DNA of 28,737 nucleotides from the NCBI GenBank assembly GCA_946482295.1, contig CAMLRB010000012.1:1-28737 (forward strand), in the 5' to 3' direction. The notes beneath the pieces were generated by a model. It was given only the letters and a program-made list of their open reading frames with translations. It had not been told where the DNA came from and did no database searches. The translations under genes were made by a program, and so were the position numbers. This stretch comes from an uncultured Bacteriovorax sp. Lineage in GTDB: Bacteria > Bdellovibrionota > Bacteriovoracia > Bacteriovoracales > Bacteriovoracaceae. Below are positions 15,151 through 28,737 of the stretch, in pieces; the first letter of the stretch is position 1, and the number at the start of each line of letters is the position of its first letter.

Positions 15151-15588
15151 ATGGATACAAATATTAAAGCCGTTCGAAAAATACATTTCTGTTATGGACA
15201 TCGAGTTGTAGGACATGAAAACAAATGTGCGAGTCTTCATGGCCACAACGGAGTTTTGTGGATTTATGCCTCTCCTAAAAAATCACTGGATGAAATAGGA
15301 AGGGTCGTCGATTTTTCAGTGATCAAAGAAATCATTGGCGGATGGGTTGATGAACATTGGGATCATACAATGATCATCAAAGACACTGATTCGGAAACCA
15401 TCAATCTTTTAAAGCAAGCGCCAGGGACAAAACCCATTTTCTTACTGCCAGAAAATCCTACTGCAGAAAACATGGCGGCTTATTTGTTAAAAGTAATTTG
15501 CCCTAAGCTTTTAAAAGACGCTGACATCGTTATTGATAAAATTACTTTTTGGGAAACAGAGAACTGTTTTGTGGAAGTGAGTTTATAA
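15151..15588 (+). CDS. queD: 6-carboxytetrahydropterin synthase/6-pyruvoyltetrahydropterin synthase family protein
   Basis: A 145-residue PTPS/QueD-fold enzyme acting on 7,8-dihydroneopterin triphosphate, usually the second step toward queuosine. The zinc ligands are H17 (YGHRV), H30 and H32 (LHGHN), and the catalytic cysteine is C26. WDHTMII and NPTAENMA are the other family motifs. The fold assignment is firm; the exact product (carboxytetrahydropterin or pyruvoyl-tetrahydropterin) is not certain. No queC, queE or folE is adjacent. It is divergent from nrdJ and may share the FNR-type site. A purine-rich AAGATAAG before the ATG is at best a weak ribosome-binding site. Confidence 0.88.
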   Translation: MDTNIKAVRKIHFCYGHRVVGHENKCASLHGHNGVLWIYASPKKSLDEIGRVVDFSVIKEIIGGWVDEHWDHTMIIKDTDSETINLLKQAPGTKPIFLLPENPTAENMAAYLLKVICPKLLKDADIVIDKITFWETENCFVEVSL

Positions 15589-15691: not shown

Positions 15692-16768
15692 ATGCAGGAC
15701 AAGGAATATCACATTCCCAATCAAAACACTCAACCAATACAGAGTTTTTCAGTTTTCAACAACTGGTCTGTGGTTGCAGAAGGGTGGTATTTTGTCTGCA
15801 AGTCTTCTGACCTTAAAAAAGTTAAAATAAAAAGTTTCAACATCTGCGGACAGGAGATCATTCTTTATCGCGGAGAAGATTCCAAAGTCAAAGCACTCGA
15901 TGCTTATTGCCCGCATATGGGAACACATTTTGGGGTCGGTAAGGTTGTTGGTAACAACATTCAATGCTTTTTTCATCATTGGAAATTTTCAGGAAGTGGG
16001 GACTGTGTGGACATTCCTTGTGAGACTAAATCCAAAGATATTGTCCAGAAGAAGGCCAAAGTCCAATCCTATGCAGTTACCGAAGCCTTTGGTGCCATCT
16101 GGATTTATCCTCATCATTCTCCAGAGTATAAACTATCCCGTTTTGCTGAGTTCGAATCGGATGATGTTATTTACGAATTCGGAGAACCATATGTCCGCAA
16201 TTGTCATCATCATGTCACAATGATCAATGGGATTGATCCTCAACACTTAAAAACCGTTCATAGAATTGACATAGAGATGAATGTGCAAATTGCAGAAGAA
16301 GGACAGATGATAGATATCATTTTGACGGGAAAAATTGGAGATAAGAATTCGCGAGAGAGATTCTTCAGAAAAATGTTAGGGGAATCATATTCATATGCAA
16401 TGAGATATGACTCTGCCAATAATGGTTTTCTTACTTTATTGAGAAACGTAAATCTTTTTGGTAAAGGGCCAAAACTACCTAGTCTGCATATGATCTTTGC
16501 TTATCGCCCGCTGGAAGTTGGTAAAACTCTAGTTCAACCCATTTATTTGAATAAAAAAAGAAAAGGCTTCAGAGGAAAATTAATTAATAAAGTTCTACTC
16601 TTTATGACAAAGAGAGCGTTCTATTCCCTTCAGGGGGAAGACGGAAAAGTTTACGAAAACATGCGTTTCTTTCCCGGGAATTTACTGGAGATTGATAAAC
16701 CGATTGGTACTTTTATCCAATATGTTAACAAACTTAAACCAAGCATCTGGAGCAGCTCATGGAAGTAG
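15692..16768 (+). CDS. Rieske-type non-heme iron oxygenase, copy 1
   Basis: A 358-residue terminal oxygenase of the Rieske family. The [2Fe-2S] ligands are C73/H75 (YCPHMG) and C92/H95 (CFFHHW). The mononuclear iron site is N179-D182-H185-H190 (INGIDPQHLKTVH), followed by a C-terminal catalytic domain. Such enzymes hydroxylate, desaturate or demethylate using electrons from a ferredoxin. The layout of the iron site and single-chain size resemble the KshA/Neverland-type group acting on sterol-like or lipophilic substrates more than the two-subunit aromatic dioxygenases; this is by overall look. It heads a four-gene operon, overlapping the next gene by 10 bp. It resembles the copy at 24811 more than that at 21909. 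Confidence 0.9.
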   Translation: MQDKEYHIPNQNTQPIQSFSVFNNWSVVAEGWYFVCKSSDLKKVKIKSFNICGQEIILYRGEDSKVKALDAYCPHMGTHFGVGKVVGNNIQCFFHHWKFSGSGDCVDIPCETKSKDIVQKKAKVQSYAVTEAFGAIWIYPHHSPEYKLSRFAEFESDDVIYEFGEPYVRNCHHHVTMINGIDPQHLKTVHRIDIEMNVQIAEEGQMIDIILTGKIGDKNSRERFFRKMLGESYSYAMRYDSANNGFLTLLRNVNLFGKGPKLPSLHMIFAYRPLEVGKTLVQPIYLNKKRKGFRGKLINKVLLFMTKRAFYSLQGEDGKVYENMRFFPGNLLEIDKPIGTFIQYVNKLKPSIWSSSWK

Positions 16769-17526
16769 CTGGCGAAGTTCTAGTTTCTCAGATAAAAAAA
16801 CGAAATACATTATTTGCGAAAGTGGTTCGACCAAAAGAAATTTCTACTGGTGAGTTAATTAGAATGCATCATTTGTTTTTGCATTATTATGATGATCATC
16901 CTTTTGAAACCTTCAAACGAGATCTGCTAGAGAAAGACGACGTTATTCTTTTAAGAGATTCAAAAACTCAAGAGTTACAAGGATTTTCTACGATTTTGAA
17001 AGTACAAATTAACAAAGACGGTACAATCTATCACGGGATTTACAGTGGAGACACTGTTGTAGCTTCTGAATATTGGGGATCGCCAGCTTTGGGAATTATG
17101 TTCCTAAAGTACCTCTGGTGGCACAAGATGAAGCATCCTTTTAGGCCGCTATATTGGTTTCTAATTTCAAAAGGCTACAAAACATATTTGTTGATGTCGA
17201 ATAACTTCAAGGTTCACTATCCACGATTTGAAATGCAGACAGATGTACACCATCAATCATTAATGGACGCCTTTTATTCAAAAAAATTTAAAAACACATA
17301 TTACCCTGAAAATAATCTCATTGTTCCTAAAGGCGAGTCTTGTCACTTGAAAATGGAAGTTGCTGATATCGATTACAAATTGTTAAAAATTCCTCGAATC
17401 AAATTTTTCCAGGATAAAAATCCAGATTGGCAAAAGGGGACGGAATTATGCTGTATAGCTGAGATGTCGCTGTTTATGCCGATGAAATATGCGCTGAAAA
17501 AGGCCCTTAAAGGATTATTAAAATGA
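16759..17526 (+). CDS. Conserved hypothetical protein, possible GNAT-like acyltransferase
   Basis: A 255-residue soluble protein I cannot place firmly. The segment from residue 25 to 135 reads like a GNAT N-acyltransferase: an early helix (GELIRMHHLFLHYYDDH), a strand pair (VILLRDSKTQELQGFSTIL), then GIYSGDTVVASEYWGSPALG leading into an amphipathic helix. PLYWFLISKGYKTYLLM follows. A clear pyrophosphate loop (Q/RxxGxG/A) is not obvious. The ATG at 16759 follows GGAG and overlaps the Rieske gene by 10 bp; its own stop overlaps the SDR start as ATGA. Tight coupling suggests it acts in the same pathway, perhaps acylating the Rieske/SDR product. Confidence 0.6.
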   Translation: MEVAGEVLVSQIKKRNTLFAKVVRPKEISTGELIRMHHLFLHYYDDHPFETFKRDLLEKDDVILLRDSKTQELQGFSTILKVQINKDGTIYHGIYSGDTVVASEYWGSPALGIMFLKYLWWHKMKHPFRPLYWFLISKGYKTYLLMSNNFKVHYPRFEMQTDVHHQSLMDAFYSKKFKNTYYPENNLIVPKGESCHLKMEVADIDYKLLKIPRIKFFQDKNPDWQKGTELCCIAEMSLFMPMKYALKKALKGLLK

Positions 17527-18368
17527 AAAGAACTATTGTTATTACGGGTGCAACTTCCGGATTTGGGCATGCACTTGTTAAAGAATTTCTGCACATGGGT
17601 GACAATGTCATTGCGACAGGAAGAAATCTTTCAAATAGAAAAGAAATCTTTGCTGAGGAAAGAGGGCAATTTAAAGATGCACTCATGGAAAAAGATCTGG
17701 ATGTCACGATTGAAAGCGAATGCTTAAAATTCGTGCAGGATCTAAATATGAACAAAACGAAAGTTGATATCTTAATCAATAACGCCGGATACGGACTTTT
17801 TGGCGCCCTAGAATCCTGCTCTTTGGAACAAATCAGACATCAGTTTGAAGTAAACTTTTTTGGACTGGTCCGTGTTACTCAGCTGCTTCTTCCCTCGCTT
17901 ATCCAATCAAAAGGTAAAATTTTTAATTTTTCTTCTGTTTTCGGATTTTCGGGATTTCCTCTGACAAGTGTTTATTGTGCCAGCAAGTTTGCAGTCGAAG
18001 GTTTTTCGGAGTCACTTGATTATGAACTTCGTCCACATGGAGTTCAGGTTTGTTTAATTGAACCGGGTGGTTATCGAACAAAGTTTGGAACAAGTTCCGT
18101 TTGGGGACAAACACCAGTTTCACTTTATGAAGTTCAGACTAAAAATTATCATGAACTTCGACATAAGATGATGACTAGAAAAAATTATCAAGACCCTCAG
18201 GATTTAGCTAGAGGCGTAGCTACTCTCTCCAGACGTTCAAGCCTTCCGCTAAGAATGCCGTTTGGAAAAGATGCAGTTTTGACTGCGACCATGAGAAAAA
18301 TTATGCCGGAGACAATTCTTCATCGAATGACTCATAAGATGTTCAATAAATTATTTTTGAGAACCTAA
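17523..18368 (+). CDS. Short-chain dehydrogenase/reductase (SDR family)
   Basis: A classical SDR of 281 residues that oxidises or reduces an alcohol/ketone with NAD(P)(H). The cofactor loop is TGATSGFG at residues 8-15. NNAG is at 86-89, the catalytic serine is in NFSSVFG (about 137-138), and the Y-x3-K pair is Y151/K155 (YCASK). EPGGYRTKF follows the active site as usual. R34 after the second strand (ATGRN) suggests NADP(H) preference. It overlaps the preceding gene by ATGA with AGGA upstream, and the diiron gene starts 1 bp after its stop. It may interconvert an alcohol made by one of the oxygenases. Confidence 0.92.
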   Translation: MKRTIVITGATSGFGHALVKEFLHMGDNVIATGRNLSNRKEIFAEERGQFKDALMEKDLDVTIESECLKFVQDLNMNKTKVDILINNAGYGLFGALESCSLEQIRHQFEVNFFGLVRVTQLLLPSLIQSKGKIFNFSSVFGFSGFPLTSVYCASKFAVEGFSESLDYELRPHGVQVCLIEPGGYRTKFGTSSVWGQTPVSLYEVQTKNYHELRHKMMTRKNYQDPQDLARGVATLSRRSSLPLRMPFGKDAVLTATMRKIMPETILHRMTHKMFNKLFLRT

Positions 18369-18369
18369 A

Positions 18370-19278
18370 TTGCAAATACCTAAAGAGAAACTTTTTTTAA
18401 ATTCCGCTGAATCAAGCAAGATTGGTCGACTTGCAAAAGTTTCTTTTGCAGCAAACGGTGTAAGGGACATCTCAGGATTAGTTTCCAGCACTCATCACTG
18501 GAAGGAAACTTTTTATGGATTGGAAAAATCATCGCTCTGGAAAAAGATTTCACTCCAAGATCAAAACAGCATTTTAAAGAATATGTCTGATCATCTCTTG
18601 CGCGAAGCTTATTATATCGAAAATGCGGGCATGTTATATGCCGCTAAAATGAATGTCATGGCCGAAACTCAGGAAGAGAGAACTTTTTATTCGATCATGG
18701 GATATGAGGAAGCCCGACATTTACAAAGTCTTCAACCTTATTTTTCAGCTGAGATACTTTCAGGACCAATTCCAGGATTTTCTGCACATATTGGAAAAAT
18801 AATTACGGAGGGTGATCGTCCTTCAAATCTTTTTCTGATTCAAATTTTGTTGGAAGGGTGGGGACTGACTTATTATCAGTCACTGGCCGATACGACTACT
18901 GATAATGGAATTCAGGATGCGTTCCAGAAGATTATTAAAGATGAGACCCGTCACCATTCGGCCGGGATGATATTACTGGAGCAGAAGCAAACGATTAATA
19001 ATAGTTTTCTCTTAGATGCCTTTCATGAGCTGCTCGAAATGGTTCGTATTGGACCTTACACCTTGGTTCAGGAAATCAAAAAGAAATACGATTTTTCTGA
19101 AAAAGAATTAAAAACGCTTTTACAGGATATAAATGCAGTTGCAGATACTAACAGAAAACTTGCACGACTACGTGACTTAACTGATAAAGCTCTGGGTGAT
19201 GATTTGATGAGAAAATTCGAGAAAAACAAAGTATGGGACTCTTACTCCCTGGAAGAGATGCTTAGGCCCCATTTATAA
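18370..19278 (+). CDS. Ferritin-like diiron protein (possible diiron oxygenase)
   Basis: A 302-residue four-helix-bundle-type protein with a full carboxylate-bridged diiron ligand set: E84 (YIEN), E114-x2-H117 (EEARH), E162 (LEGWG) and E192-x2-H195 (DETRHH). This E/ExxH/E/ExxH order is that of ferritin-like oxidases and oxygenases. The longer length and C-terminal helical extension are unlike storage ferritin, so a substrate oxidase is more likely. It starts at a TTG 1 bp after the SDR stop with a weak GAGA element upstream; no nearby ATG fits. Its 3' end overlaps the converging GH3-type gene by 37 bp. It is the last gene of the plus-strand operon. Confidence 0.8.
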   Translation: MQIPKEKLFLNSAESSKIGRLAKVSFAANGVRDISGLVSSTHHWKETFYGLEKSSLWKKISLQDQNSILKNMSDHLLREAYYIENAGMLYAAKMNVMAETQEERTFYSIMGYEEARHLQSLQPYFSAEILSGPIPGFSAHIGKIITEGDRPSNLFLIQILLEGWGLTYYQSLADTTTDNGIQDAFQKIIKDETRHHSAGMILLEQKQTINNSFLLDAFHELLEMVRIGPYTLVQEIKKKYDFSEKELKTLLQDINAVADTNRKLARLRDLTDKALGDDLMRKFEKNKVWDSYSLEEMLRPHL

Positions 19279-20576
19279 AGTTCATCAGCTACTTCTTTTC
19301 TTTTGATAATGACTGCATCTTTTTGATCCCCGAAATTCACATTGAGAGCAGCATAACACTGTTGTATTTTATTTCTTAAGCCTTTTACCAATACAGTCTT
19401 TGCAGGTAGCAGCTGATTCAGTTCTCTGGCCAGTTTGTAATGGTGAATATCCTGAAGGATGTCTTCTGCTTCTCTTTTATTTTTCAGTGAACTCTCATCG
19501 ACTAAAAAAACATAGTGACGTGGTTCTTCGACAGGCAGAACCACAAAATCACCGTAGTAAGAAGCACATAATTTCGTTAGCACTGGACCTGAAAGCTTTT
19601 CACCGACCATATCTGACTGATCACCCTTTCGCCCAGTAAACTCAAGCATAGGAGTTTTGCGGTAAAATCCCGTGCACTGAACCAGATCACCCATGGGATA
19701 AAAATTTTCATTGTTAGGAAACCATGGCGCAATTTCGTAAACCATTCCAGGCTCGAGCTCATCTAGATTTTTTGCACTACCATCTTGGCAGGAAAAACGA
19801 TATCCAATTTGATTAACGAGCGGAAGATAACTTCCGCTCATGATCCATGGAATAGTCATCGGTCCTTCTGTGGCCAGCAATCCTTTTCCCTGAAACCATA
19901 CATGCGGAAATATGTCTTTTAACATTTCAAAGGAGCGATGCGATTCACCGGAAGACCAAGCGCTTATAATTTTAAGTTTTGGCCAGTGGTCATTGAAATT
20001 TCCTCTGAAACCGAGACGAGTTTGATTCTGAATAATATAATCAAGAAGACTAAGAAAATAAGTAGGGCTCCAGATGGAAATGATCTCAAGATCCTTTCGG
20101 CTTAAAAGTTCTCGAGCAAGCTGGAAAAAAAATTCTTCTCCATTCTGCACCCTTTGCAGTGATGGATCGACAGCAAGAAATCTTCTAAGGATAGGACGAA
20201 TAAGAGGAGAAACATAAGCGCTGTCATCTTCCAGTCCTCCATGCTCTCCTAGGCGAGGAGATATGCTCATATAGAGAACACCCGTTTCTAATTTAACAGG
20301 AGCATGCCGGAGAATATCATTGGTCCACAGTATGAACATTGTAGAGAAAGATTTTTTTAATTCGCTGGTATAAGGAATGCTTTTTTTGGGTCCGCTGCTG
20401 CCTGATGTGAATTCATAACTCAAAGGAGCTTGCTGCCAAATTTTTAAAGTTTGCCATCGATAATAAAGCTGTTTTTGAGCTTTCATAGGATCATTAAGTG
20501 CTAACTCGAATTTACGCGTTTGATAGTTAGCGAAGGTTTTAAAGGCCGATGTTCCAAGTTTGAACATCAAACTCAC
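19242..20576 (-). CDS. GH3-type acyl-adenylating enzyme (ANL superfamily)
   Basis: A 444-residue enzyme of the adenylate-forming type. The ATP loop is TSGSSGPKKSIP near residues 57-68. Later motifs are LLATEGPM, FYPMGDLVQ and LEFTGRKGDQSDMVGEKL, the A5/A7-like elements of GH3 acyl-amido synthetases. Plant GH3 proteins conjugate acids such as auxin to amino acids; bacterial members are mostly uncharacterised. I set the start at GTG 20576, which overlaps the upstream stop as GTGA and has GGAGA at good spacing, rather than the TTG at 20597. No carrier protein is visible, consistent with direct amide formation by a GH3 enzyme. It probably activates an acid made by the cluster. Confidence 0.82.
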   Translation of the reverse strand: MSLMFKLGTSAFKTFANYQTRKFELALNDPMKAQKQLYYRWQTLKIWQQAPLSYEFTSGSSGPKKSIPYTSELKKSFSTMFILWTNDILRHAPVKLETGVLYMSISPRLGEHGGLEDDSAYVSPLIRPILRRFLAVDPSLQRVQNGEEFFFQLARELLSRKDLEIISIWSPTYFLSLLDYIIQNQTRLGFRGNFNDHWPKLKIISAWSSGESHRSFEMLKDIFPHVWFQGKGLLATEGPMTIPWIMSGSYLPLVNQIGYRFSCQDGSAKNLDELEPGMVYEIAPWFPNNENFYPMGDLVQCTGFYRKTPMLEFTGRKGDQSDMVGEKLSGPVLTKLCASYYGDFVVLPVEEPRHYVFLVDESSLKNKREAEDILQDIHHYKLARELNQLLPAKTVLVKGLRNKIQQCYAALNVNFGDQKDAVIIKRKEVADELYKWGLSISSRE

Positions 20577-21178
20577 AGGTATTCTCCACGCCACCAAATT
20601 CTGCTTTTCGGTTTTACCTTTGTTCCTGCCGTAATAATTGCACCAGGACCAAATTGAGAATCAGCGCCGATAAATGCTTTATCTCCAATACGAACCTTTT
20701 TGATAATGAGGTGAGGCTTACCGTCAATATCTGCAACCATATGTGAACTCATTGCCGTCAGGTGGCCAAGCACAACACCATTACCGATTTCAACTAAACC
20801 GCGATCCAGAATTTCTACTCGCGGAGTCCAGAAAACCTTTTTTCCAATTTTTGATCCCCAGGCCCTTAGCCAGATCGAAAAAAGGCCAGGCACGATGTGC
20901 AGAATATTTTCCAGTGGAGGAATGACGATAAACAGATATTGCAGCTGATGATTTCCCCACCAGGCAGAATATTTTTTTTCTGATAGATCAATGGAGGTTT
21001 CACTCAACGGAAAAAAAGCATTATGTATTTGCAAAAGAATTAGAGGTATTAAATAGAGCCAGGCAAGTGCCGCCAGAAAATATAGAGGATGGCACGCAAC
21101 GCTTAGATAAAGAGTAACGAGCAGTCCAGAAAAATGAAGCAGAGGAAAAAGGGTAATTAATCTTCCTAACAAAGTCAT
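20573..21178 (-). CDS. Membrane-associated hexapeptide-repeat (left-handed beta-helix) acyltransferase-like protein
   Basis: A 201-residue protein. The N-terminal part has two hydrophobic segments (about residues 1-25 and 30-55). The second half has hexapeptide-type turns: VEIGNGVVLGHLTAMSSH, IKKVRIGDKAFIGADSQFGPGAIITAGTKVKPKSR, as in LbH acyl- and acetyltransferases and the C-terminal domains of some NRPS-like proteins. I choose ATG 21178, which overlaps the upstream stop as ATGA and has GGAG at eight bases, over the ATG at 21202. The gene sits between a lipid-type hydroxylase and the GH3-type enzyme. It may O-acylate the hydroxylated product at the membrane. No CoA-binding or catalytic residue can be fixed with confidence. 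Confidence 0.7.
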   Translation of the reverse strand: MTLLGRLITLFPLLHFSGLLVTLYLSVACHPLYFLAALAWLYLIPLILLQIHNAFFPLSETSIDLSEKKYSAWWGNHQLQYLFIVIPPLENILHIVPGLFSIWLRAWGSKIGKKVFWTPRVEILDRGLVEIGNGVVLGHLTAMSSHMVADIDGKPHLIIKKVRIGDKAFIGADSQFGPGAIITAGTKVKPKSRIWWRGEYL

Positions 21179-21918
21179 TTGAGTCTCCAGGGGGTGAGCC
21201 ATTGAACCCAGAATGAACCATTAATTGATTCTCCAAACACAGAACATTTCTCTTTGTTTTTATAATAAGTGTTGTGCAGACGATCCCACCAGACAAAATT
21301 TGCGCCAAAATTTGTATCATATATTTCGCTGGAGTGATGCCATTCATGATCATGCGGCATGATCAAAAAGGTCCCTAAAGTTTTTTCAACATTACCTGGA
21401 AATCTCATTCCTGAATGTCTCCAGAGATCAAGTGCGTTCCCAATTGCAATGGCCATTAAAAATCCAGCAGCGTCGTTCAGTAGATAAATGAAAAAAGAAT
21501 GAATCCAAAGATAAATAATAAAAAAAGAGGACAAGAAACTATTGCGTGAACTCACCCAAACATCAAGCTTCTTAGCACTGTGGTGGATTCTATGTAAGGG
21601 CCAAAATATTTTTTTATGAAGTAATCGGTGATTCCAGTAATACATATAATCGATCAGTACAAATTGCAGAAGAAATGACCATGCCCAGGATAAGTGAAAA
21701 ATACCTTTGTAATCTGGAATAATCAGCTCAAAACATTTAAAAAGAAAATAGGTCTGAATCAGTGGGAATAAAAAACCCTGTTGAAGAAGTCCCAGTGTAT
21801 CCAGCAGCCACTCAGAAGCAGCTCTTTGCAAAGCACGTTCTCGGAACCTGAATAGGGTCCACAGACTAATGGACCAGAAAACGCACAAAACTATAAGAAG
21901 TTCGAACGTTATATCCAA
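21175..21918 (-). CDS. Fatty acid hydroxylase/sterol desaturase superfamily membrane protein
   Basis: A diiron integral membrane oxygenase of 247 residues. The three histidine boxes are HRLLH (97-101), HRIHH (109-113) and HDHEWHH (189-195), with RHSG (H168) as an additional ligand candidate. Four or so hydrophobic segments surround them. The superfamily includes C-4 sterol methyl oxidase, C-5 sterol desaturase, carotenoid hydroxylase and alkyl-lipid hydroxylases, so the substrate is probably hydrophobic. The TTG at 21918 has GAGGAT upstream and overlaps the Rieske gene by 10 bp. The stop overlaps the next start as ATGA. Family firm, substrate unknown. Confidence 0.9.
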   Translation of the reverse strand: MDITFELLIVLCVFWSISLWTLFRFRERALQRAASEWLLDTLGLLQQGFLFPLIQTYFLFKCFELIIPDYKGIFHLSWAWSFLLQFVLIDYMYYWNHRLLHKKIFWPLHRIHHSAKKLDVWVSSRNSFLSSFFIIYLWIHSFFIYLLNDAAGFLMAIAIGNALDLWRHSGMRFPGNVEKTLGTFLIMPHDHEWHHSSEIYDTNFGANFVWWDRLHNTYYKNKEKCSVFGESINGSFWVQWLTPWRLK

Positions 21919-22931
21919 AACTTTATCCTCGAAGATTTAATCGGAAGCTCCAATGGATTGCGTCCTTCCTGAATTTCTTTTTGTATTGATTCAATGTAAG
22001 TATGGATGATATCGCAGGGGGAGTAGGCAAATTGCGGACCAAATTTTTCAATTCCTTTCATTTGATCGCGCAGAATAACGATGTCTTGATCGATGATCGC
22101 TTGTCCGTGTTTACGAATAATGGGTCTTGATAGTTTCGTCCAGAATCCATAGTTATAAGTGAGGTCAGTATACACCAAAGTTTTTTTGTCTGTGAGGGGA
22201 ATGGACTGAGATGTGATAATAAAATGTTTACCATTGCCAAACCAATAGTTCACCGTTGTCACATTAGGCATGTAAAATTCATCGGTATGCTGAATTTCCA
22301 CTCCTTTGGGATTGAGAAACCAGCTGAAGAGGCCAAAGTTTTTCTTCTCTCCGATATATGTGACTTTTACATGGCCTGGTTTTCTTTCCACCTCTGCTTC
22401 AATTGCTTCATTTCCAGGATCACGAAAAATTTTAGGATGAACAAAAGTTGTATGCGGAATATCTACGAAATTTTCAGCGCAGTTTGTGACTGTGTTTTCA
22501 AATGTGTTTTGTAGCCTGATGGTCGTGTAACCTTTATCGCCGTAGTGGGGCATACTAAAAGGTTTTGTTTCAAATGCTGGATTGGAGTTTAAGCGGACAT
22601 AAATGTAGTCGTCCTGTTCGATAACTTCATAAGACTTTGCACACTTCTTCTTAGTAACCATCTGAGGACCTTCAGAAGGTATCGCTGTAACATCTCCTGA
22701 GCCCGCATAAACCCAGCCGTGATAGCTACATTGTAATTTTCCGTTTAGAACACGACTTTTAGACAGTTGAACAGTTCTATGCAGACAGCGATCTTCAAGT
22801 GCACATGCCCTTCCATTCTCATCGCGAAAAAGTACGATCCAATGATCGAATAATTCGCATGCCTTGAGTTGATCTCTTTTTAGCTCATTTGATTCTGCAA
22901 GAATGTACCAGAAGTTTTGGGCCGAAATCAT
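21909..22931 (-). CDS. Rieske-type non-heme iron oxygenase, copy 2
   Basis: A 340-residue ring-hydroxylating-type oxygenase. The Rieske ligands are C49/H51 (CLHR) and C68/H71 (CSYHGW), the classic CxH/CxxH pair. The mononuclear iron site is N154-D157-H160-H165 (ENFVDIPHTTFVH). The Rieske domain resembles that of aromatic or phenoxy oxygenases and differs clearly from the other two copies in the locus, which share CPHMG and an INxID iron-site motif; it probably performs a distinct step. It is directly downstream of the ferredoxin gene with an ATGA overlap, so that ferredoxin is its likely electron donor. The 3' end overlaps the hydroxylase gene by 10 bp. Confidence 0.92.
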   Translation of the reverse strand: MISAQNFWYILAESNELKRDQLKACELFDHWIVLFRDENGRACALEDRCLHRTVQLSKSRVLNGKLQCSYHGWVYAGSGDVTAIPSEGPQMVTKKKCAKSYEVIEQDDYIYVRLNSNPAFETKPFSMPHYGDKGYTTIRLQNTFENTVTNCAENFVDIPHTTFVHPKIFRDPGNEAIEAEVERKPGHVKVTYIGEKKNFGLFSWFLNPKGVEIQHTDEFYMPNVTTVNYWFGNGKHFIITSQSIPLTDKKTLVYTDLTYNYGFWTKLSRPIIRKHGQAIIDQDIVILRDQMKGIEKFGPQFAYSPCDIIHTYIESIQKEIQEGRNPLELPIKSSRIKFWI

Positions 22932-23224
22932 ATTTTCTCTTTATCAATTTTAATATTGGTTGTGAGTTTTATCTGGCATGCAAGGCGGAGAGTTTTATCG
23001 CCCGGAAACAGGCCTTCTAGGTATTCTGTTTCATCTGCACTTCTTTCATGTAATGGATGCGGATTTTCTTCATGCACACGGATGAGGCATGTTCCGCAAA
23101 TTCCCGTACGGCAACCGAATAGAATTGGAGAATTCTGAATATTCAATTTCTCAGAGAGCTTCGCGTTTTCGTCAAGCTCGATTGTACTATATTTTGAATC
23201 ACAAAAAGTTACATTATACTTCAT
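22928..23224 (-). CDS. Plant-type [2Fe-2S] ferredoxin
   Basis: A 98-residue electron carrier. The cluster cysteines are C38, C43, C46 and C83 (FGCRTGICGTC ... LACQIK), the C-x4-C-x2-C pattern of plant or oxygenase-reductase ferredoxin domains. It lacks attached flavin or NAD domains. Both neighbours overlap it by 4 bp (ATGA), so it is translationally coupled between the AurF-like gene and Rieske copy 2. It is the only dedicated carrier in the locus, so it may feed all three Rieske enzymes and perhaps the diiron proteins. No reductase gene is visible, so electrons must come from a reductase encoded elsewhere. Confidence 0.93.
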   Translation of the reverse strand: MKYNVTFCDSKYSTIELDENAKLSEKLNIQNSPILFGCRTGICGTCLIRVHEENPHPLHERSADETEYLEGLFPGDKTLRLACQIKLTTNIKIDKEKI

Positions 23225-24411
23225 GCGGCGTTGGGCCTGAAGTGCTTGAATGCTTCTTTGTTTGTCCTTAAATGTTTTTCGAGATTGTTTTTCGCCATGA
23301 TCGCCATGTCTTTGTTCTTTTTATTAACATACTTGAAGTCCGCCAGATAATGCTTGTAACTATCAATAGATTCCTGATGAGTTTTATGTGACAGCAACAT
23401 TCCTTCTGATTCTTCACAAAAACTTTTTTTAATGGCAATCATAGCTTCATCATGATTCATGTTAAAAACTTTTGAACGGAGAATTTTGTAAATCTGCTGG
23501 TAAAGGGCAGGATCATACCAATAAATTCCATTAATCGCAGTTGAGAAATTATAGTGATCGCGCTGACAGCCTTCCAGTGCCATGTTCGCTACAAATGTTT
23601 CAAATTTATTTGCAGGTGGAAGAGAGTTAATTACGTTCTGTGAGATTACGCATGAAGTATTAAAGTGAAAACTTTCGTCCATGAAATGATAAAAAGAAAT
23701 CTTCGATGGAATGGGTGCGTTTTCTTTGTCTGCATGTTCACTAAAATAGCGTGAAAGTTGATGCTGCACTATTTTTCCGTTCAATGTGCGAAGTCCACGC
23801 ACGGTAAAATACTGGCACCCAATAAAAGCACTATTTGAAGAAAGCATCGAATATGTTCTTAATTGCCATTTTCTTAGCCACTGAGATAGTTCAGATAAAT
23901 CTGAATACAGCATCGTTTTTACAAATGGTGTACGCATTGGATAAGTGAAAATGCGCTCGCCAAACATTTCCTCTTCGAATTTTTCAGAGACTGTTTTAAA
24001 AGCATTGATATGAGCACGTTCCTGTGCGGATTCCAGATCCAGAGTGTCGCAGACAATTCGGAAATCTTCCAGGCCGTACATGGCCGCTGCTGCTGTTTGA
24101 TTAAAGAAGATTGTCGCGATTTCCGCTGATGTGATCTGAGCGTAATAGGCGACCCAATAGAGCTGATTCAAAACCTTTTTTTGTTCAGGGGTTGAATTAT
24201 CCCAAAGCCATGTACCGTACATAAGGCTAAATTTTTCAGGATTCCACATCTCACCTTTGCAATCTTCAAGCTTAAAGAGTTTTGCAGAAAGATCCATATT
24301 TTCTGTCTGATCTAGTTCTTTACTTTTCTTAAGGGCCATTTCTATGCGTTTGAAAGTTTTTTGATCTTCAAGAAGAGTAGAGTTGTGAGTTTGTAATAAA
24401 TTTTTATTCAT
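23221..24411 (-). CDS. AurF-like diiron oxygenase
   Basis: A 396-residue helical protein with a ligand pattern like the p-aminobenzoate N-oxygenase AurF: E97 (AEIAT), E131-x2-H134 (ERAH) and the signature H242-x3-E246-x2-H249 (HFMDESFH). The spacing of the first two matches AurF (E101, E136/H139); the last is about 20 residues later. AurF has a further bridging glutamate that I cannot place securely. AurF relatives oxidise amines to nitro groups or act as alcohol/aldehyde oxygenases. I chose ATG 24411, within the end of the previous gene (8-bp overlap), over an upstream start at 24444. It probably performs an oxidation in the locus; N-oxygenation is one possibility only. Confidence 0.75.
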   Translation of the reverse strand: MNKNLLQTHNSTLLEDQKTFKRIEMALKKSKELDQTENMDLSAKLFKLEDCKGEMWNPEKFSLMYGTWLWDNSTPEQKKVLNQLYWVAYYAQITSAEIATIFFNQTAAAAMYGLEDFRIVCDTLDLESAQERAHINAFKTVSEKFEEEMFGERIFTYPMRTPFVKTMLYSDLSELSQWLRKWQLRTYSMLSSNSAFIGCQYFTVRGLRTLNGKIVQHQLSRYFSEHADKENAPIPSKISFYHFMDESFHFNTSCVISQNVINSLPPANKFETFVANMALEGCQRDHYNFSTAINGIYWYDPALYQQIYKILRSKVFNMNHDEAMIAIKKSFCEESEGMLLSHKTHQESIDSYKHYLADFKYVNKKNKDMAIMAKNNLEKHLRTNKEAFKHFRPNAA

Positions 24412-24814
24412 TGATCGTTCCCAGTTTTGTGAACATTTCTGCATCGGCTTCAGATTTTATTAAGCCATTTTTATAACTTTTCCATTTGTTATTTACGTAA
24501 GTGATTTCATCATTGTATCGTCCACAAACAAATAAAAGCGCCATCATTGAGCTGAACTGGACGACTTGAAGACTAGATGTGGCCTCTTTTGCATCGACTG
24601 TTCCATCGCGGAAAAAATAGTGACCGGCAGTTCCTATCAGTCCTGAAAGAAAAAATCCAATGATCCACCAAGGATTCACAACAATAGCTAGTAAAGGACA
24701 AAACCAAAAACATAAGAAACTCACAAAGTGTACGACAACGTTCTTCTTATTCTGGTGGCGTAATACGAACAAGTCCCAATTCACCAACGATGAATAATCT
24801 TTTGAAGTTTTCAT
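24404..24814 (-). CDS. DUF962/Mpo1-like integral membrane protein
   Basis: A 136-residue membrane protein matching the bacterial DUF962 layout: an N-terminal helix ending in RHQNKKNVVVHF, two hydrophobic segments around NPWWIIGF, and GHYFF at the end of the second. Yeast Mpo1, of the same family, is an Fe(II)-dependent dioxygenase that removes one carbon from 2-hydroxy fatty acids. The conserved histidines H19, H29 and the GH histidine are present; the usual FEKNRPA after the second is replaced by FRDGTVDAKEA. The start overlaps Rieske copy 3 as ATGA. In this context a lipid-oxidising role is plausible, but most bacterial members are uncharacterised. Confidence 0.72.
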   Translation of the reverse strand: MKTSKDYSSLVNWDLFVLRHQNKKNVVVHFVSFLCFWFCPLLAIVVNPWWIIGFFLSGLIGTAGHYFFRDGTVDAKEATSSLQVVQFSSMMALLFVCGRYNDEITYVNNKWKSYKNGLIKSEADAEMFTKLGTINE

Positions 24815-25815
24815 GCGCCTTTAGAATTCCAGTTTGCTGCAGGTTTTTGAGTTTCGTAATGTTCGATAAAGTCTATGATTGCTTTGTCCGCTTTTATCGG
24901 AGTTTTGAAATTGAATTTAATTTTTGAAAAGATAATCGTATCGCCTTTGGCAAAATAATCACCCACGAGTTTGGTGAGATAGAGAATAATCGGATTGATC
25001 AATCCGCCCAATTTTCTTTTTTCTGTTACTAATATTGTTTGCCCTTCTGCAAAGCCGTTGGTTGTTGGTTTAAGAGCAAAAATAATATAAAAATGAAGAA
25101 AGTCCGGTCCAACCATTACAGACCCGACATGTCCCCACCAATAAGTCATTTCATAAGTAAGTGCATTTTTGTAAAAACGCGAAGCCCACTTCAAAAGAAA
25201 ATTTTTATGTGGAAGTGGTGTTGTATTTGAAAGCTGAATACATCGAGGAGAGAGGATTTTTGGTTTCATCTCAAGATCAACAACCAGATTGTGAACAGAT
25301 CTGAAATGCTGAGCATCGATAGCATTAATCATAACAACGTTTGGGTGACAATTTTTTATAAATGTATTTCCAAGATGCCAATCGAGTTCTTTTCCTGCCA
25401 GCTCTGGAATGACTGGTACTTCTTCAATTGTTTCCATGGGACCAGTCCAGATCCATACTAGTCCATATTTTTCTGAGTGCTGATATGATTTTAATTTTTG
25501 AACATTCTTAACATCATTTTGTGCGGGAATATCAATGCAATCGCCGCGATCATTAAATTTCCAATAGTGAAAGGGACATCGAATATTATTACCTTCAACT
25601 GTACCATCGCAAAGATGAGCACCCATATGCGGACAGTGGGCATCCATAACCCGAATAACATTATCCTCTCCACGATACACGACAAAATTCTTGTCGAGCA
25701 GTTGAGCTGGTTTTGCTTTTCCCTTTTTTACTTCAGATGATTTAATAAGCCAGAACCAACCTTCTGGCAGAAATTTAGTGTTGGCAAAATTATGGAGCGT
25801 TTCATGATATGACAT
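24811..25815 (-). CDS. Rieske-type non-heme iron oxygenase, copy 3
   Basis: A 334-residue oxygenase that heads the minus-strand operon. The Rieske ligands are C61/H63 (CPHMG) and C80/H83 (CPFHYW), and the iron site is N164-D167-H170-H175 (INAIDAQHFRSVH). It looks like a paralogue of copy 1 at 15692: both start with an EGW(Y/F)(F/W) segment, have CPHMG(T/A)H and end the Rieske domain with WKF plus GDC(V/I)DIP. Two similar enzymes facing each other suggest duplication within the locus, acting on related substrates. The ATG at 25815 has GGGGA at ideal spacing; the upstream TTG at 25899 would run through the divergent promoter region and is rejected. Confidence 0.9.
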   Translation of the reverse strand: MSYHETLHNFANTKFLPEGWFWLIKSSEVKKGKAKPAQLLDKNFVVYRGEDNVIRVMDAHCPHMGAHLCDGTVEGNNIRCPFHYWKFNDRGDCIDIPAQNDVKNVQKLKSYQHSEKYGLVWIWTGPMETIEEVPVIPELAGKELDWHLGNTFIKNCHPNVVMINAIDAQHFRSVHNLVVDLEMKPKILSPRCIQLSNTTPLPHKNFLLKWASRFYKNALTYEMTYWWGHVGSVMVGPDFLHFYIIFALKPTTNGFAEGQTILVTEKRKLGGLINPIILYLTKLVGDYFAKGDTIIFSKIKFNFKTPIKADKAIIDFIEHYETQKPAANWNSKGA

Positions 25816-25837
25816 ACAATTTCCCCAATATATTATA

Positions 25838-25866
25838 TTGCCCTTTTCATTTTTATGTCTAATTAT
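25838..25866 (+). promoter_or_regulatory. Candidate promoter of the MMPL-type exporter gene
   Basis: TTGCCC (25838-25843) and AATTAT (25861-25866) are 17 bp apart, with the expected start at or near the ATG at 25872. No Shine-Dalgarno is visible, again hinting at a leaderless transcript. The divergent operon must be read from the same 56-bp gap or from within the exporter's 5' end. Confidence 0.35.
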
Positions 25867-25871
25867 TTTAT

Positions 25872-28070
25872 ATGACCAGAAATGTCCCACCACTCTCAAA
25901 AACAGAGGGAAACGAGAATTTTCTCACTCGCTTTTTTCATCGGATTTTATCGTTTTGTTACCACTATCCAAGAACAAACGTTATCCTGTTTGTCTCCCTA
26001 TTGGGCCTTTCATTCTATGGAATAAGCAAAATTCAGCTTGAACTCGATATTTATGACGTTAAAGATGTGAACTTTAGCTCGAGTTCAAATTGGTTCACTT
26101 TAAGATCTGAGTTTAAAGACCCTAATTCGCTCTACTTTATCTGGACGCCATCTGATCGTTCAAACACTAAAGCTCATTGTGAATGGCAGAATGTTCTGCA
26201 GAAAACGCTCAATGAAGAAATGTTAATTACTCGGATATTTCACGTTTATGGTTTAAGAGCTCCTCATAATGAAGAAGGAGATCTGCTTTATCGGAAAATA
26301 CTCCCTGATCCATGTGATCATAATTGGTCAGATGAAACGCTCCAACGAATCAGTTTCTCTTACTGGCGGCCAGTGATTGTAGACAAAAATCAAAAAAGTT
26401 TTATCACAGAAGTAAGTTTCGAAGGTGACATTGAAAATGATGAAGTCGTAGACATTAAAGAAATTGAAAGAATTTCTCAAACGTTGATGAAAGAAAATAA
26501 ACGCATCGATCCAGCTGGTGAAATTCGTTATCTCGGACCGCTAAGTTATCGTCTTGAATTCAAAAAAATTCTGGCAAAAGATGGTCTCTTGAATATCGGC
26601 CTTCTCGTTTTCATTATTGCTTTCTTCAGGGCATTTCTTGGGACATGGAGCAGTGGTCTTGTGTACAGTCTGGCCACTGTGCTGACAATGATACTTACTG
26701 TTGGACTATGCTCATTAATGGGCCATCCTCTTGATATCCTCAGCAACAATCTCATCTTAATGACTGCAATTGCTGGAACGGCAGATTTTCTTTTTCTAAC
26801 TCTGTCCTTCAAAAAAAATCCCGGAAGATCAGGATTTTATAAAATCATTACACCTGCTTTTTTTACGACGTTTACAACGATGGTGGGTTTTTTATCACTT
26901 TATACTTCTGATCTTGTCCTCATCCGCCGCTTTGGAATCACAGCTGCTATTGGAGCTTTCTTCGAATGGGCCGTACTCTTCATGCTTTTTCCTTCTCTCC
27001 GTGCAATTTTCAAAATGGAAAAAACCTGGATCAACGAAGAGAAAGCCTTCAAGATCACTACTTTAAAAAAGCTTCTCGAGTACACTCCTACTAAAAAAGT
27101 GACATATCTTTTTTTAACAATGGCAAGTCTGGCCTTTGTCTCATGGCCTTATCTCAATTATGCCGATGCCCCCAAAAACAATTTTCCAGAAAAGCATATC
27201 CTTCGCAGGACGATAGAATCATTTACCCAGCAGTTTGGATGGGAAGGAAACATTTCACTACTTTTTCATAAAAATGTTTCTCTGGAAGAACGTGAAAAAA
27301 TCCTCAACAAGCTGAAAAGTGATCCACTTGTATTTTACATTGAAGATAAAAAGTTATTGCTGGAAACATGGACGAAAGAATTCGAAGCAAAAGAAAGAAA
27401 AGAACTAATCACAAGAGACTTTGAGTCTTCGGCCCTGAACAAACGTTTTGAATCTCACGACTATTATCGATCTATTCTATATTTAAAAAAAATCCACACA
27501 AATGAACTGGAATTTTTTCAGAAATCAGTGGAGAAAATTTGCGGTGATAAATGCTTTTTGTCCGGACAGGTTTTGGTTTATTTAGAGCTCAACAAGAGGG
27601 TAAGTTACACTATGCTTGAAAGTTTTCTCACAAGCATTTTCCTTGTCTTGATCGTTTTGTTCACGCTCATGAAAATCCTAAAGGTGAAGGGAGCCAGATT
27701 TATAGAAATCGTGCTTTCAAGTCTTGTTGGTCCGCTGTTTATGTTAACCGTGATGGTTGTTCTGCAAGTTCCGGTGAACATTGTTACTTCAATTTTTTTT
27801 GCTGCCATGGTCGGATTAACTGGCGACAATGCCATTCAATATCTCTTTGCTGGTGTAGGACGCACTCTTGACGAAGGTATTGATGAAAGAGGAGATGGAA
27901 GTTTAATATTCGCCATTTTATTGGTAACAGGAAGTCTCTTTTTCATTGGGCAAACACTTATTCCGCTCAAATGGCTTGGATTCCTCCTTTCATTAGGATT
28001 TCTCATTAATTTTGTGGGAGATTACTGGATTCTTAAAGGCCTGAAGGAGCAAAAAAAAAGCGGCACTTGA
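25872..28070 (+). CDS. RND-superfamily MMPL-type exporter
   Basis: A 732-residue integral membrane protein with the duplicated RND layout. TM1 is at about residues 35-52, followed by a soluble loop to about 230 and then five segments to about 370. The second half repeats this: TM7 around 406-425, a shorter loop and TM8-12 from about 580 to 725. GTADFLFL in the first half and TGDNAIQYL in the second are MMPL/SSD-type motifs in the TM4/TM10 positions, where a conserved Asp carries protons. Relatives export lipids such as hopanoids, mycolates or polyketide lipids. Divergent placement beside the oxygenase operon suggests it moves the locus product out of the inner membrane. Confidence 0.88.
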   Translation: MTRNVPPLSKTEGNENFLTRFFHRILSFCYHYPRTNVILFVSLLGLSFYGISKIQLELDIYDVKDVNFSSSSNWFTLRSEFKDPNSLYFIWTPSDRSNTKAHCEWQNVLQKTLNEEMLITRIFHVYGLRAPHNEEGDLLYRKILPDPCDHNWSDETLQRISFSYWRPVIVDKNQKSFITEVSFEGDIENDEVVDIKEIERISQTLMKENKRIDPAGEIRYLGPLSYRLEFKKILAKDGLLNIGLLVFIIAFFRAFLGTWSSGLVYSLATVLTMILTVGLCSLMGHPLDILSNNLILMTAIAGTADFLFLTLSFKKNPGRSGFYKIITPAFFTTFTTMVGFLSLYTSDLVLIRRFGITAAIGAFFEWAVLFMLFPSLRAIFKMEKTWINEEKAFKITTLKKLLEYTPTKKVTYLFLTMASLAFVSWPYLNYADAPKNNFPEKHILRRTIESFTQQFGWEGNISLLFHKNVSLEEREKILNKLKSDPLVFYIEDKKLLLETWTKEFEAKERKELITRDFESSALNKRFESHDYYRSILYLKKIHTNELEFFQKSVEKICGDKCFLSGQVLVYLELNKRVSYTMLESFLTSIFLVLIVLFTLMKILKVKGARFIEIVLSSLVGPLFMLTVMVVLQVPVNIVTSIFFAAMVGLTGDNAIQYLFAGVGRTLDEGIDERGDGSLIFAILLVTGSLFFIGQTLIPLKWLGFLLSLGFLINFVGDYWILKGLKEQKKSGT

Positions 28071-28094: not shown

Positions 28095-28737
28095 TCATCT
28101 AACGAAAATTGCCGGAAGATTCATAACCATTGTTGTGCCTAAGCTATATCGCATAATACGTCTTGCTTCGGCCATGTAATTGACGCTCTGGCCTTTTGCA
28201 CTTGGAATATAATTTTTCCAGACGTCGTTGTTCCAGCCAATTGAGCGGCCTTTATAGTAATTGCGCACTTTAAGTGTTTCTCCCATTTTGTTTTTCAGGA
28301 TTTTTTCGTTTTCACCCACTTCAAATTTATTTGCCATTAAATCGCCTAAATTTTTTGGAGGATTAATGTAGAAAGCAGGGAGATTGACTGTTACTGATTT
28401 GCCAGAAACAGGATCTCTGACTTCAGTTACACCTTTAACAACGGCAAGCATGTTTTTAACACCTTTATCGAGGTGAGTTTTTGATTCAAGTGAGAAATCG
28501 ATTGGATTAAGTCCCATGGCCGGATTTGCATCTTTCCCCTGAAGGTATTGGTAAGCTCCATCAACATAGAAGACATAATTCACAAGAGCAGTGTAGGCCT
28601 GTTTCATAAGGTTAGCACCATATGAAGGATTGCCCTGCAGTGATCTAAGAGTTAAAAAATTTTTCTTCATAATTGCTTCGCGGAGGACACCGATTCTTTC
28701 TTCATCAGTGAGTCCAAGATCTTCTTTTTCTTTTCCA
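28095..28737 (-). CDS. Unrecognised protein, N-terminus cut by window edge
   Basis: The frame is open from the right edge to the stop at 28095 and shows 213 residues. An ATG at 28670 exists, but in-frame sequence continues upstream (KEKEDLGLTDEERIGVLREAI), so the gene very likely starts outside the window. The visible part is soluble, mixed alpha/beta with many Lys, Asn and Tyr, and has no signal sequence, metal motif or catalytic signature that I recognise. KTHLDKGVKNMLAVVKGV looks helical; NPPKNLGDLMANKFEVGEN and RNYYKGRSIGWNNDVWKNY follow. It ends NLPAIFVR. A strong terminator lies directly downstream. No function is proposed. Confidence 0.75.
   Translation of the reverse strand, partial: GKEKEDLGLTDEERIGVLREAIMKKNFLTLRSLQGNPSYGANLMKQAYTALVNYVFYVDGAYQYLQGKDANPAMGLNPIDFSLESKTHLDKGVKNMLAVVKGVTEVRDPVSGKSVTVNLPAFYINPPKNLGDLMANKFEVGENEKILKNKMGETLKVRNYYKGRSIGWNNDVWKNYIPSAKGQSVNYMAEARRIMRYSLGTTMVMNLPAIFVR

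What the first reader, a model, noticed from the sequence alone, without database searches (positions are those of the whole stretch)
15692..28070. Oxygenase-rich locus: a likely uncharacterised biosynthetic or lipid-tailoring system
The sequence shows two converging operons and a divergent exporter gene. They encode three Rieske oxygenases, two ferritin/AurF-like diiron proteins, a histidine-box membrane hydroxylase, a DUF962/Mpo1-like protein, a ferredoxin, an SDR, a GH3-type adenylating enzyme, a hexapeptide acyltransferase, a GNAT-like protein and an MMPL exporter. Nearly every junction overlaps, so the genes are selected to be coexpressed. I know no described pathway with this set. No polyketide synthase, NRPS or terpene cyclase is present, so the scaffold probably comes from primary lipid or isoprenoid metabolism and is oxidised, conjugated and exported here.
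Basis: partly seen in the sequence, partly recalled or inferred. Interest (0 to 1): 0.88.

Follow-up and report, generated by a model that had tools for sequence, protein, structure and literature searches.

The report
Carrier-free lipid oxidation–halogenation gene cluster
A predatory-type bacterium carries a tightly packed set of about a dozen iron-enzyme genes that is shared, nearly whole, with cyanobacteria and other distant bacteria and probably makes an oxidised, possibly halogenated, fat-derived molecule that nobody has yet identified.

Summary
Thirteen genes at 15692-28070 form two converging operons plus a divergent RND/MMPL-like gene: three Rieske oxygenases, two diiron proteins, a histidine-box hydroxylase, ferredoxin, Mpo1-like, GNAT-fold, SDR, GH3-like and hexapeptide proteins. 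Of 68 loci with at least 7 kb on both sides of the AurF-like gene, 57 hold nine or ten of ten core genes, in Bdellovibrionota, Cyanobacteria, Myxococcota, Elusimicrobiota and Gammaproteobacteria.

It is not an undescribed type. Eusébio et al. 2021 (PMC8406957) described orphan "Rieske-containing" clusters around homologs of the halogenase CylC in cyanobacteria. The "AurF-like" protein belongs to that family by motif (ExxQExxH in 199 of 199 sequences; HxxDExxH in 197). It has glutamine in 199 of 199 where AurF and the four other-context CylC homologs checked have glutamate; that residue was essential in the halogenase NocO (PMC12101540).

C30/C40 isoprenoid scaffolds are unlikely: squalene-hopene cyclase is missing from 31 of 42 and squalene/phytoene synthase from 18 of 39 cluster-bearing genomes searched.

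Best reading: a carrier-free fatty-acyl tailoring pathway. The product is unknown; halogenation is plausible but unshown.

The parts
15692..16768 (+). gene a: Rieske non-heme iron oxygenase 1 (358 aa)
   Evidence: PF00355 E 2.4e-22; CxH..CxxH and DPQHLKTVH motifs, both patterns in 60 of 60 locus ORFs
16759..17526 (+). gene b: GNAT-fold acyltransferase-like protein (255 aa), no clear Pfam family
17523..18368 (+). gene c: short-chain dehydrogenase (281 aa)
   Evidence: PF00106 E 4e-46; in 19 of 24 Bdellovibrionota but 1 of 39 cyanobacterial untruncated loci
18370..19278 (+). gene d: ferritin-like diiron oxidase (302 aa), likely ligands E84, E114xxH117, E162, E192xxH195
19242..20597 (-). gene e: GH3-like adenylating acid-amido synthetase-type protein (451 aa)
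   Evidence: PF03321 E 2.9e-10, 40 bits against cut-off 23.6
20573..21202 (-). gene f: hexapeptide (left-handed beta-helix) acyltransferase with N-terminal hydrophobic segments (209 aa)
   Evidence: PF00132 E 7e-8; hydrophobic segments
21175..21918 (-). gene g: histidine-box membrane fatty-acid hydroxylase (247 aa)
   Evidence: PF04116 E 8e-24; NCBIfam OlsE E 8e-16, below its cut-off; His-box patterns in 60 of 60 locus ORFs
21909..22931 (-). gene h: Rieske oxygenase 2 with VanA-type C-terminal domain (340 aa)
   Evidence: PF00355 E 1.6e-21, PF19112 E 7.6e-10
22928..23224 (-). gene i: plant-type [2Fe-2S] ferredoxin (98 aa)
   Evidence: PF00111 E 3.3e-10; cysteine pattern in 62 of 62 locus ORFs
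23221..24411 (-). gene j: CylC/AurF-type diiron protein of the dimetal-carboxylate halogenase family (396 aa from the start shared by homologs; the ORF runs to 24444)
   Evidence: 1139 homologs; ExxQExxH 199 of 199, HxxDExxH 197 of 199, Gln at the AurF E196 position 199 of 199; 4 of 4 CylC homologs from other contexts have Glu there
24404..24814 (-). gene k: Mpo1/DUF962-like membrane protein (136 aa), accessory
   Evidence: PF06127 E 0.0012, below cut-off; relatives pass; in 6 of 24 Bdellovibrionota and 16 of 39 cyanobacterial untruncated loci
24811..25815 (-). gene l: Rieske oxygenase 3, KshA-like C-terminal weak match (ORF runs to 25899; start at 25815 inferred)
   Evidence: PF00355 E 3.7e-24, PF19298 below cut-off
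25872..28070 (+). gene m: RND/MMPL-like (HAE3) membrane transporter (732 aa), lineage-specific
   Evidence: NCBIfam TIGR00921 E 6.5e-12, below cut-off; 10 hydrophobic segments; in 6 of 24 Bdellovibrionota and 0 of 39 cyanobacterial untruncated loci
28095..28736 (-). C-terminal part of a protein of unknown function that runs off the window; possible neighbour gene of the unit
   Evidence: beside the cluster in 11 of 24 untruncated Bdellovibrionota loci and none of the other 44; the L008 homolog starts with a hydrophobic, signal-like stretch

Best explanation
The locus is a Bdellovibrionota member of the orphan 'Rieske-containing CylC-homolog' cluster class. It encodes a carrier-free tailoring pathway on a fatty-acyl (central lipid) substrate. 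Shown: the gene set, intact cofactor motifs, conservation of the unit across phyla, membership of j in the CylC sequence family, and no PKS or NRPS motif in the neighbourhoods. Inferred: the GNAT (b) and hexapeptide (f) enzymes acylate a small acceptor; the membrane hydroxylase (g), Rieske enzymes (a, h, l) and ferritin-like oxidase (d) oxidise the chain or head, with electrons through ferredoxin i and a host reductase; j functionalises an unactivated C-H bond, most likely by halogenation; GH3 protein e adenylates a carboxylate and couples it to an amine; m exports or places the product in the envelope. The order of steps and the product are not known.
For: Neighbourhoods: 57 of 68 untruncated loci hold 9 or 10 of 10 core genes (39 hold ten, 18 nine), and the order j-i-h-g-f-e is kept in 56 of 68 (summed from the rows). 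Pairwise gene distances correlate (Spearman 0.59-0.93). Halogenase-family motifs as given in PMC12871659 are met by j. j aligns at 29% with L082, a Stanieria locus with P450 and sulfotransferase genes, a context that PMC8406957 counts among CylC homologs. No KS or A-domain motif and three doubtful carrier-like patterns in six-frame translations of 96 sources (patterns recalled). Lipid-type neighbours: FA_hydroxylase/OlsE-like, Mpo1-like, ADO-like fold of d. SHC and SQS/PSY are missing from many cluster-bearing genomes. PMC8406957 itself proposes central fatty-acid intermediates as substrates.
Against: No substrate or product is known, and no enzyme of this clade has been assayed in anything I read. 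The lipid assignment rests on family resemblance. The Gln at the AurF E196 / NocO E252 position departs from the characterised halogenase, where alanine there abolished chlorination (PMC12101540). Two of 68 loci hold only j plus one other core gene (L031, L051) and nine more hold five to eight. Correlated distances may partly reflect species relatedness. MMPL (by similarity to m) is absent from the 39 cyanobacterial loci, so export by m is not a general feature. Gene a itself is replaced by another Rieske type in the myxococcal and gammaproteobacterial loci.
Confidence: 0.6

Rival explanations
1. j is not a halogenase in this clade: with Gln in place of the E196/E252 glutamate it is a diiron hydroxylase, desaturase or other oxidase, so the pathway makes only an oxidised lipid.
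For: Gln in 199 of 199 sequences of this clade against Glu in 4 of 4 CylC homologs from other contexts; E252A kills chlorination in NocO; long branch between the two groups; no assay in this clade turned up in the paper searches.
Against: The halogenase-specific Gln of ExxQExxH is kept in 199 of 199, whereas AurF has Asp at that place (PMC12101540). The same paper says that a small subset of CylC homologs have Gln at the second position and reads that site as a possible open halide site.
Confidence: 0.4
2. A catabolic or detoxifying locus: Rieske oxygenases and hydroxylases open an external aromatic or sterol-like compound.
For: Rieske oxygenases of the KshA and VanA types often serve catabolism (recalled); VanA_C match of h and weak KshA_C match of l; a dienelactone-hydrolase-family gene flanks 5 loci.
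Against: GH3, GNAT and hexapeptide transferases are synthetic in character. None of the 13 cluster genes matches a ring-cleavage, CoA-ligase or beta-oxidation family. Of the recurring flanking families only ten were scanned with Pfam, plus ten other flanking genes, so this is not a full survey.
Confidence: 0.08
3. Tailoring of a sterol, hopanoid or carotenoid.
For: Rieske proteins match the sterol demethylase SdmA (E 1e-19 to 2e-22, far below its cut-off); the hydroxylase family includes sterol desaturases; HpnN-like weak match of m.
Against: SHC is absent from 23 of 34 and 8 of 8 further cluster-bearing genomes; SQS/PSY is absent from 18 of 39, including G074, which is essentially one 3.4-Mb contig.
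Confidence: 0.04
4. Sphingolipid-type modification (SDR like ketosphinganine reductase, Mpo1, membrane hydroxylase).
For: The SDR matches NCBIfam KdsR (E 8e-48, below cut-off); Mpo1 acts on 2-hydroxy fatty acids from phytosphingosine in yeast (recalled).
Against: The SDR is missing in 38 of 39 untruncated cyanobacterial loci, and none of the 13 cluster genes is a serine palmitoyltransferase-type PLP enzyme. Such an enzyme was not sought in whole genomes.
Confidence: 0.07

Closest known systems
'Rieske-containing' CylC-homolog clusters of cyanobacteria (Eusebio et al. 2021, PMC8406957; n = 36, no known product)
   Same: CylC/AurF-type diiron gene with two to four Rieske genes and a sterol-desaturase/fatty-acid hydroxylase family gene, no carrier protein; most cyanobacterial loci found here share the ten core genes of the window or nine of them.
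   Different: The window has an SDR and an MMPL-like gene and two converging operons; 38 of 39 untruncated cyanobacterial loci lack the SDR, and many have an amidohydrolase near Mpo1. The paper's main text does not mention GH3 or hexapeptide (0 occurrences); its supplements were not seen.
CylC / NocO-type dimetal-carboxylate halogenases of PKS and resorcinol pathways
   Same: ExxQExxH and HxxDExxH motifs, AurF-like diiron family.
   Different: 26-27% identity to the four plasmid-borne homologs found; no FAAL/ACP partner; Gln instead of Glu at the AurF E196 / NocO E252 position.
AurF, CmlI-type N-oxygenases
   Same: Diiron ligand pattern E, ExxH, HxxxExxH; Pfam AurF matches 18 of 23 aligned members at E 0.01.
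   Different: Gln instead of Asp before the ExxH glutamate, and Gln instead of the seventh ligand E196 (AurF residues as given in PMC12101540).
Cyanobacterial aldehyde-deformylating oxygenase (for gene d)

Membership tests
Rieske-containing CylC-homolog cluster class (PMC8406957) | CylC homolog in the clade tied to Rieske contexts | tested here: met
   j falls with 54 cyanobacterial rows apart from 4 CylC homologs of other contexts, support 100 (quick tree, long branches meet). My rows were not matched by name to the paper's sequences.
Rieske-containing CylC-homolog cluster class (PMC8406957) | two to four Rieske genes and a sterol desaturase family gene nearby | tested here: met
   three Rieske genes and PF04116 in the window
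Rieske-containing CylC-homolog cluster class (PMC8406957) | no substrate activation or carrier protein in the neighbourhood | tested here: inconclusive
   no carrier, KS or NRPS A-domain pattern in the window (patterns recalled, crude), but GH3 gene e is itself a likely acid-activating enzyme
Dimetal-carboxylate halogenase | ExxQExxH and HxxDExxH motifs (PMC12871659) | tested here: met
   both in the window protein; 199 of 199 and 197 of 199 in the set
Dimetal-carboxylate halogenase | second-sphere Glu (AurF E196 / NocO E252), needed in NocO | tested here: not met
   Gln in 199 of 199; PMC12101540 reports that a small subset of homologs have Gln. I therefore call j a member of the sequence family, not a shown halogenase.
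Dimetal-carboxylate halogenase | halogenation activity | not testable with these tools
   needs an enzyme assay
AurF-type N-oxygenase | Asp before the ExxH glutamate and Glu at E196 | tested here: not met
   Gln at both places in the window protein
Rieske non-heme iron oxygenases (a, h, l) | CxH..CxxH Rieske cluster and DxxHx(3-4)H iron site | tested here: met
   all three window proteins; 60 of 60, 63 of 63, 63 of 63 locus ORFs
GNAT superfamily (b) | GNAT fold | tested here: met
GH3 acid-amido synthetase (e) | GH3 domain above curated cut-off | tested here: met
   PF03321 40.3 bits against 23.6; TSGSSG-like pattern in 32 of 52 locus ORFs
MMPL/RND exporter (m) | MMPL domain above curated cut-off | tested here: inconclusive
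   14.1 of 20.5 bits; HAE3 E 6.5e-12 below its cut-off
Mpo1 2-hydroxy acid dioxygenase (k) | PF06127 above curated cut-off | tested here: inconclusive
   window protein 19.3 of 24 bits; relative L025 33.7 bits
Sterol/hopanoid tailoring | squalene cyclase in cluster-bearing genomes | tested here: not met
   absent in 23 of 34 and 8 of 8; some are incomplete MAGs; the window's own genome could not be searched

The most novel reading that the evidence does not exclude
A widespread, carrier-independent aliphatic C-H halogenation pathway is shared by predatory-type Bdellovibrionota, Myxococcota, Elusimicrobiota and filamentous cyanobacteria. Its diiron enzymes use a Gln-variant active site, a natural E-to-Q form of the position that matters in NocO, to halogenate a free or membrane lipid. 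The result is a new family of oxidised halolipids, conjugated by a GH3 enzyme outside plant-hormone biology.
Probability: 0.3. Interest if true: 0.85.

Novelty: new member of a known kind. Interest (0 to 1): 0.6.

Why it matters
I found no product in print for this class, described in 2021 (searches). This work gives a concrete core gene list, nine genes of which hold in five phyla and a tenth in Bdellovibrionota and Cyanobacteria, and links genome context to one active-site change. It also suggests that the non-cyanobacterial branch is not rare: j occurs in 30 of 368 genomes of the Bdellovibrionota search, 21 of 386 cyanobacterial and 6 of 282 myxococcal genomes, against 'rare' in the 2021 abstract. 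If j halogenates carrier-free lipids, it would widen the chemistry of diiron halogenases and offer biocatalysts for unactivated C-H bonds.

Tried and rejected
Sterol, hopanoid or carotenoid substrate: rejected as a general substrate, because SHC and SQS/PSY are absent from many cluster-bearing genomes. GH3 as a marker of the cluster: rejected, since PF03321 occurs in 128 of 368 genomes of the phylum while j occurs in 30; 28 of those 30 have a GH3 hit (my count over the rows). Sequence search of the j and b profiles against PDB: no match at E 10; d gave only weak matches to designed and natural diiron helix bundles. Plasmid search with j found only four distant cyanobacterial homologs. QueD/PTPS at 15151-15588 and the class II RNR as parts of the unit: rejected; neither appears in any of the 80 loci or 15 more. 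Halobacteriovorax extras (671-aa protein in three loci, SelO-like in four) are not core. First count corrected: one search labelled a distinct Rieske type as gene a in the myxococcal and gammaproteobacterial loci; one search separates it, which moves ten-of-ten from 42 to 39 and nine-of-ten from 15 to 18, the sum staying at 57 of 68. Carrier search: one search used ORFs of 80 aa or more, which can miss carrier proteins; one search repeated it on segments of 60 aa or more. Paper searches for a product of this cluster type found the 2021 orphan description but no product; the library holds only open-licence PMC papers, and most listed papers were seen only as listings. No aldehyde-deformylating role is claimed for d, as sMMO and R2 proteins follow within about two Z units.

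Full report
What is there. Ten of 12 junctions overlap; c/d has a 1-nt gap and l/m a gap of 56 nt if l starts at 25815, which I infer from homolog length. Pfam supports three Rieske proteins, SDR, GH3, hexapeptide, fatty-acid hydroxylase and ferredoxin above cut-off; Mpo1-like, MMPL, ferritin-like and AurF-like assignments of the window proteins are below cut-off and rest on relatives, models or other libraries.

Conservation. A search with j found 1139 homologs. A profile of 35 of them was used on one-genome-per-species contigs: 149 loci confirmed, the best 80 kept. To these I added 15 loci out of the 30 of 368 genomes of the phylum of L005 that hold j; the other 15 were already among the 80. 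Of these 95 loci, 68 have at least 7 kb on both sides of j. With Rieske genes typed against a, h, l and a further Rieske type, all ten core genes (a, b, d, e, f, g, h, i, j, l) are present in 39, nine in 18, eight in 3, seven in 2, six in 3, five in 1 and two in 2 (L031, L051). The order j-i-h-g-f-e on one strand, with or without a inserted, is kept in 56 of 68 (my sum over the rows, which counts labelled genes only). By group the 68 are 39 cyanobacterial, 24 Bdellovibrionota, 2 Myxococcota, 1 Elusimicrobiota, 1 Acidobacteriota (the L031 exception) and 1 gammaproteobacterial. All ten occur only in Bdellovibrionota and cyanobacterial loci; the two myxococcal, the elusimicrobial and the gammaproteobacterial locus have nine, lacking a. 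The loci were chosen by similarity to j, and the 80 best of 149 favour close relatives and cyanobacteria, so these are not frequencies in nature. The nearest relative, L114, has all 13 genes and the neighbour at 28095 in the same arrangement, j at 82% and m at 61% identity.

Co-inheritance. Pairwise distances among loci correlate between all gene pairs that could be computed (Spearman 0.59 to 0.93). Relatedness of species contributes to this, so it supports but does not prove transfer as a unit. In the j tree cyanobacteria form one group (support 91) and Bdellovibrionota need three changes; several branches are long and the method was the quick one.

Accessory genes. The SDR is in 19 of 24 Bdellovibrionota but 1 of 39 cyanobacterial untruncated loci; Mpo1-like in 6 of 24 and 16 of 39; MMPL (by similarity to m) in 6 of 24 and 0 of 39. 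A different MMPL protein lies beside the gammaproteobacterial locus L059. An amidohydrolase recurs in 18 of the 95 loci and is fused to the Mpo1-like domain in L017. A further Rieske type and a 2-oxoacid-dehydrogenase-type acyltransferase occur in the same 13 loci (9 Bdellovibrionota, 2 Myxococcota, 1 Elusimicrobiota, 1 gammaproteobacterial), including L114, but not in the window. There it is a fourth Rieske gene in five loci (L008, L009, L010, L114, L123) and stands in for a in L014, L047, L059 and L063.

What j is. The published marks of dimetal-carboxylate halogenases are ExxQExxH and HxxDExxH (PMC12871659, passages read). In 199 sequences of this clade (120 database proteins, 78 locus ORFs and the window; some are near-duplicates) the first is present in 199 and the second in 197. 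The Gln of the first motif is Asp in AurF (PMC12101540, passages read). At the position of AurF E196 the clade has Gln in 199 of 199. Four CylC homologs from other contexts have Glu there, 27 residues before the HxxDExxH histidine: two beside a fatty acyl-AMP ligase and a carrier protein (L128, L129), one beside P450 and sulfotransferase (L082), and one in an unannotated stretch (L081). In our clade the spacing is 26, so a one-residue gap is assumed (alignment). In NocO the equivalent E252 appears not to bind iron but its alanine variant lost chlorination, and the authors note that a small subset of homologs have Gln. I therefore place j in the family by sequence and leave its reaction open.

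What the pathway acts on. Six-frame translations of 96 sources (95 loci and the window) show no ketosynthase or NRPS adenylation motif and three doubtful carrier-like patterns, in L006 (two) and L075 (patterns recalled and crude). Squalene-hopene cyclase is absent from 23 of 34 cluster-bearing genomes, including all 14 named Bdellovibrionota-phylum loci in that list and L042, which the phylum search also places there, and from 8 of 8 more. It is present in 11, so it is compatible with the cluster but not required. Squalene/phytoene synthase is absent from 18 of 39 and present in 21; one of those without it, G074, is essentially a single 3.4-Mb contig. Some genomes are incomplete MAGs, so single absences mean little, but the pattern argues against a C30/C40 isoprenoid scaffold. 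What remains common to all carriers is fatty-acyl metabolism (established knowledge, not tested here), which fits the hydroxylase, the Mpo1-like protein, the transferases and GH3. PMC8406957 proposed the same for the cyanobacterial clusters.

Prior knowledge. PMC8406957 (passages, among them parts of the abstract, and section 19 read) describes 36 'Rieske-containing' clusters with no known product, five related 'PriA-containing' ones in Synechocystis, and a sequence-network cluster that mixes cyanobacterial with a few, mostly deltaproteobacterial, homologs. It calls non-cyanobacterial homologs rare. The present searches find j in 30 of 368 Bdellovibrionota-phylum genomes at E 1e-20 (all 30 hits are at 1e-164 or better), 21 of 386 cyanobacterial and 6 of 282 myxococcal genomes at E 1e-100; phylum names follow the record titles of the centre genomes. 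My paper searches found no product for this cluster type.

Verdict. The claim that nothing like it has been described is not. The locus is a new member of a known but orphan class, with a better defined core gene set and an active-site signature that makes its central enzyme a natural test of how diiron halogenases hold the halide.

Noticed in passing
L114:0.7-1.8 kb; L008:2930-4797; L065:17915-19806; L059:15712-17564: A distinct Rieske type paired with a roughly 255-aa 2-oxoacid-dehydrogenase-type (CAT-like) acyltransferase gene occurs in 13 of 95 loci of several phyla, but not beside the window's cluster.
   Followed up: partly
L017:7088-9421: Amidohydrolase fused to an Mpo1-like domain; separate amidohydrolase and Mpo1-like genes lie near each other in many cyanobacterial loci.
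   Followed up: partly
L029:4845-6551 and four more cyanobacterial loci (L033, L038, L056, L073): A SulP/STAS anion transporter gene lies inside the cluster in 5 loci (Pfam run on L029 only); it could supply an anion such as sulfate or halide, untested.
   Followed up: no
L031:15033-15980, L048, L068, L069, L080: A dienelactone-hydrolase-family gene flanks 5 clusters (Pfam run on L031 only).
   Followed up: no
28095-28736: Partial gene of unknown function, conserved beside the cluster only in Bdellovibrionota (11 of 24 untruncated loci).
   Followed up: partly
12552-14999: 815-aa B12-dependent class II ribonucleotide reductase-like protein, with a PTPS/QueD-like gene at 15151-15588 beside it; not tied to the cluster.
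   Followed up: no
L065:7988-9814, L075, L076, L122: SelO-like gene upstream of j in four Bdellovibrionota loci, three of them Halobacteriovorax (Pfam run on L065 only).
   Followed up: no
L031 and L051: Loci with j and only a ferredoxin (L031) or one Rieske gene (L051) nearby, so j can stand outside the full cluster.
   Followed up: no
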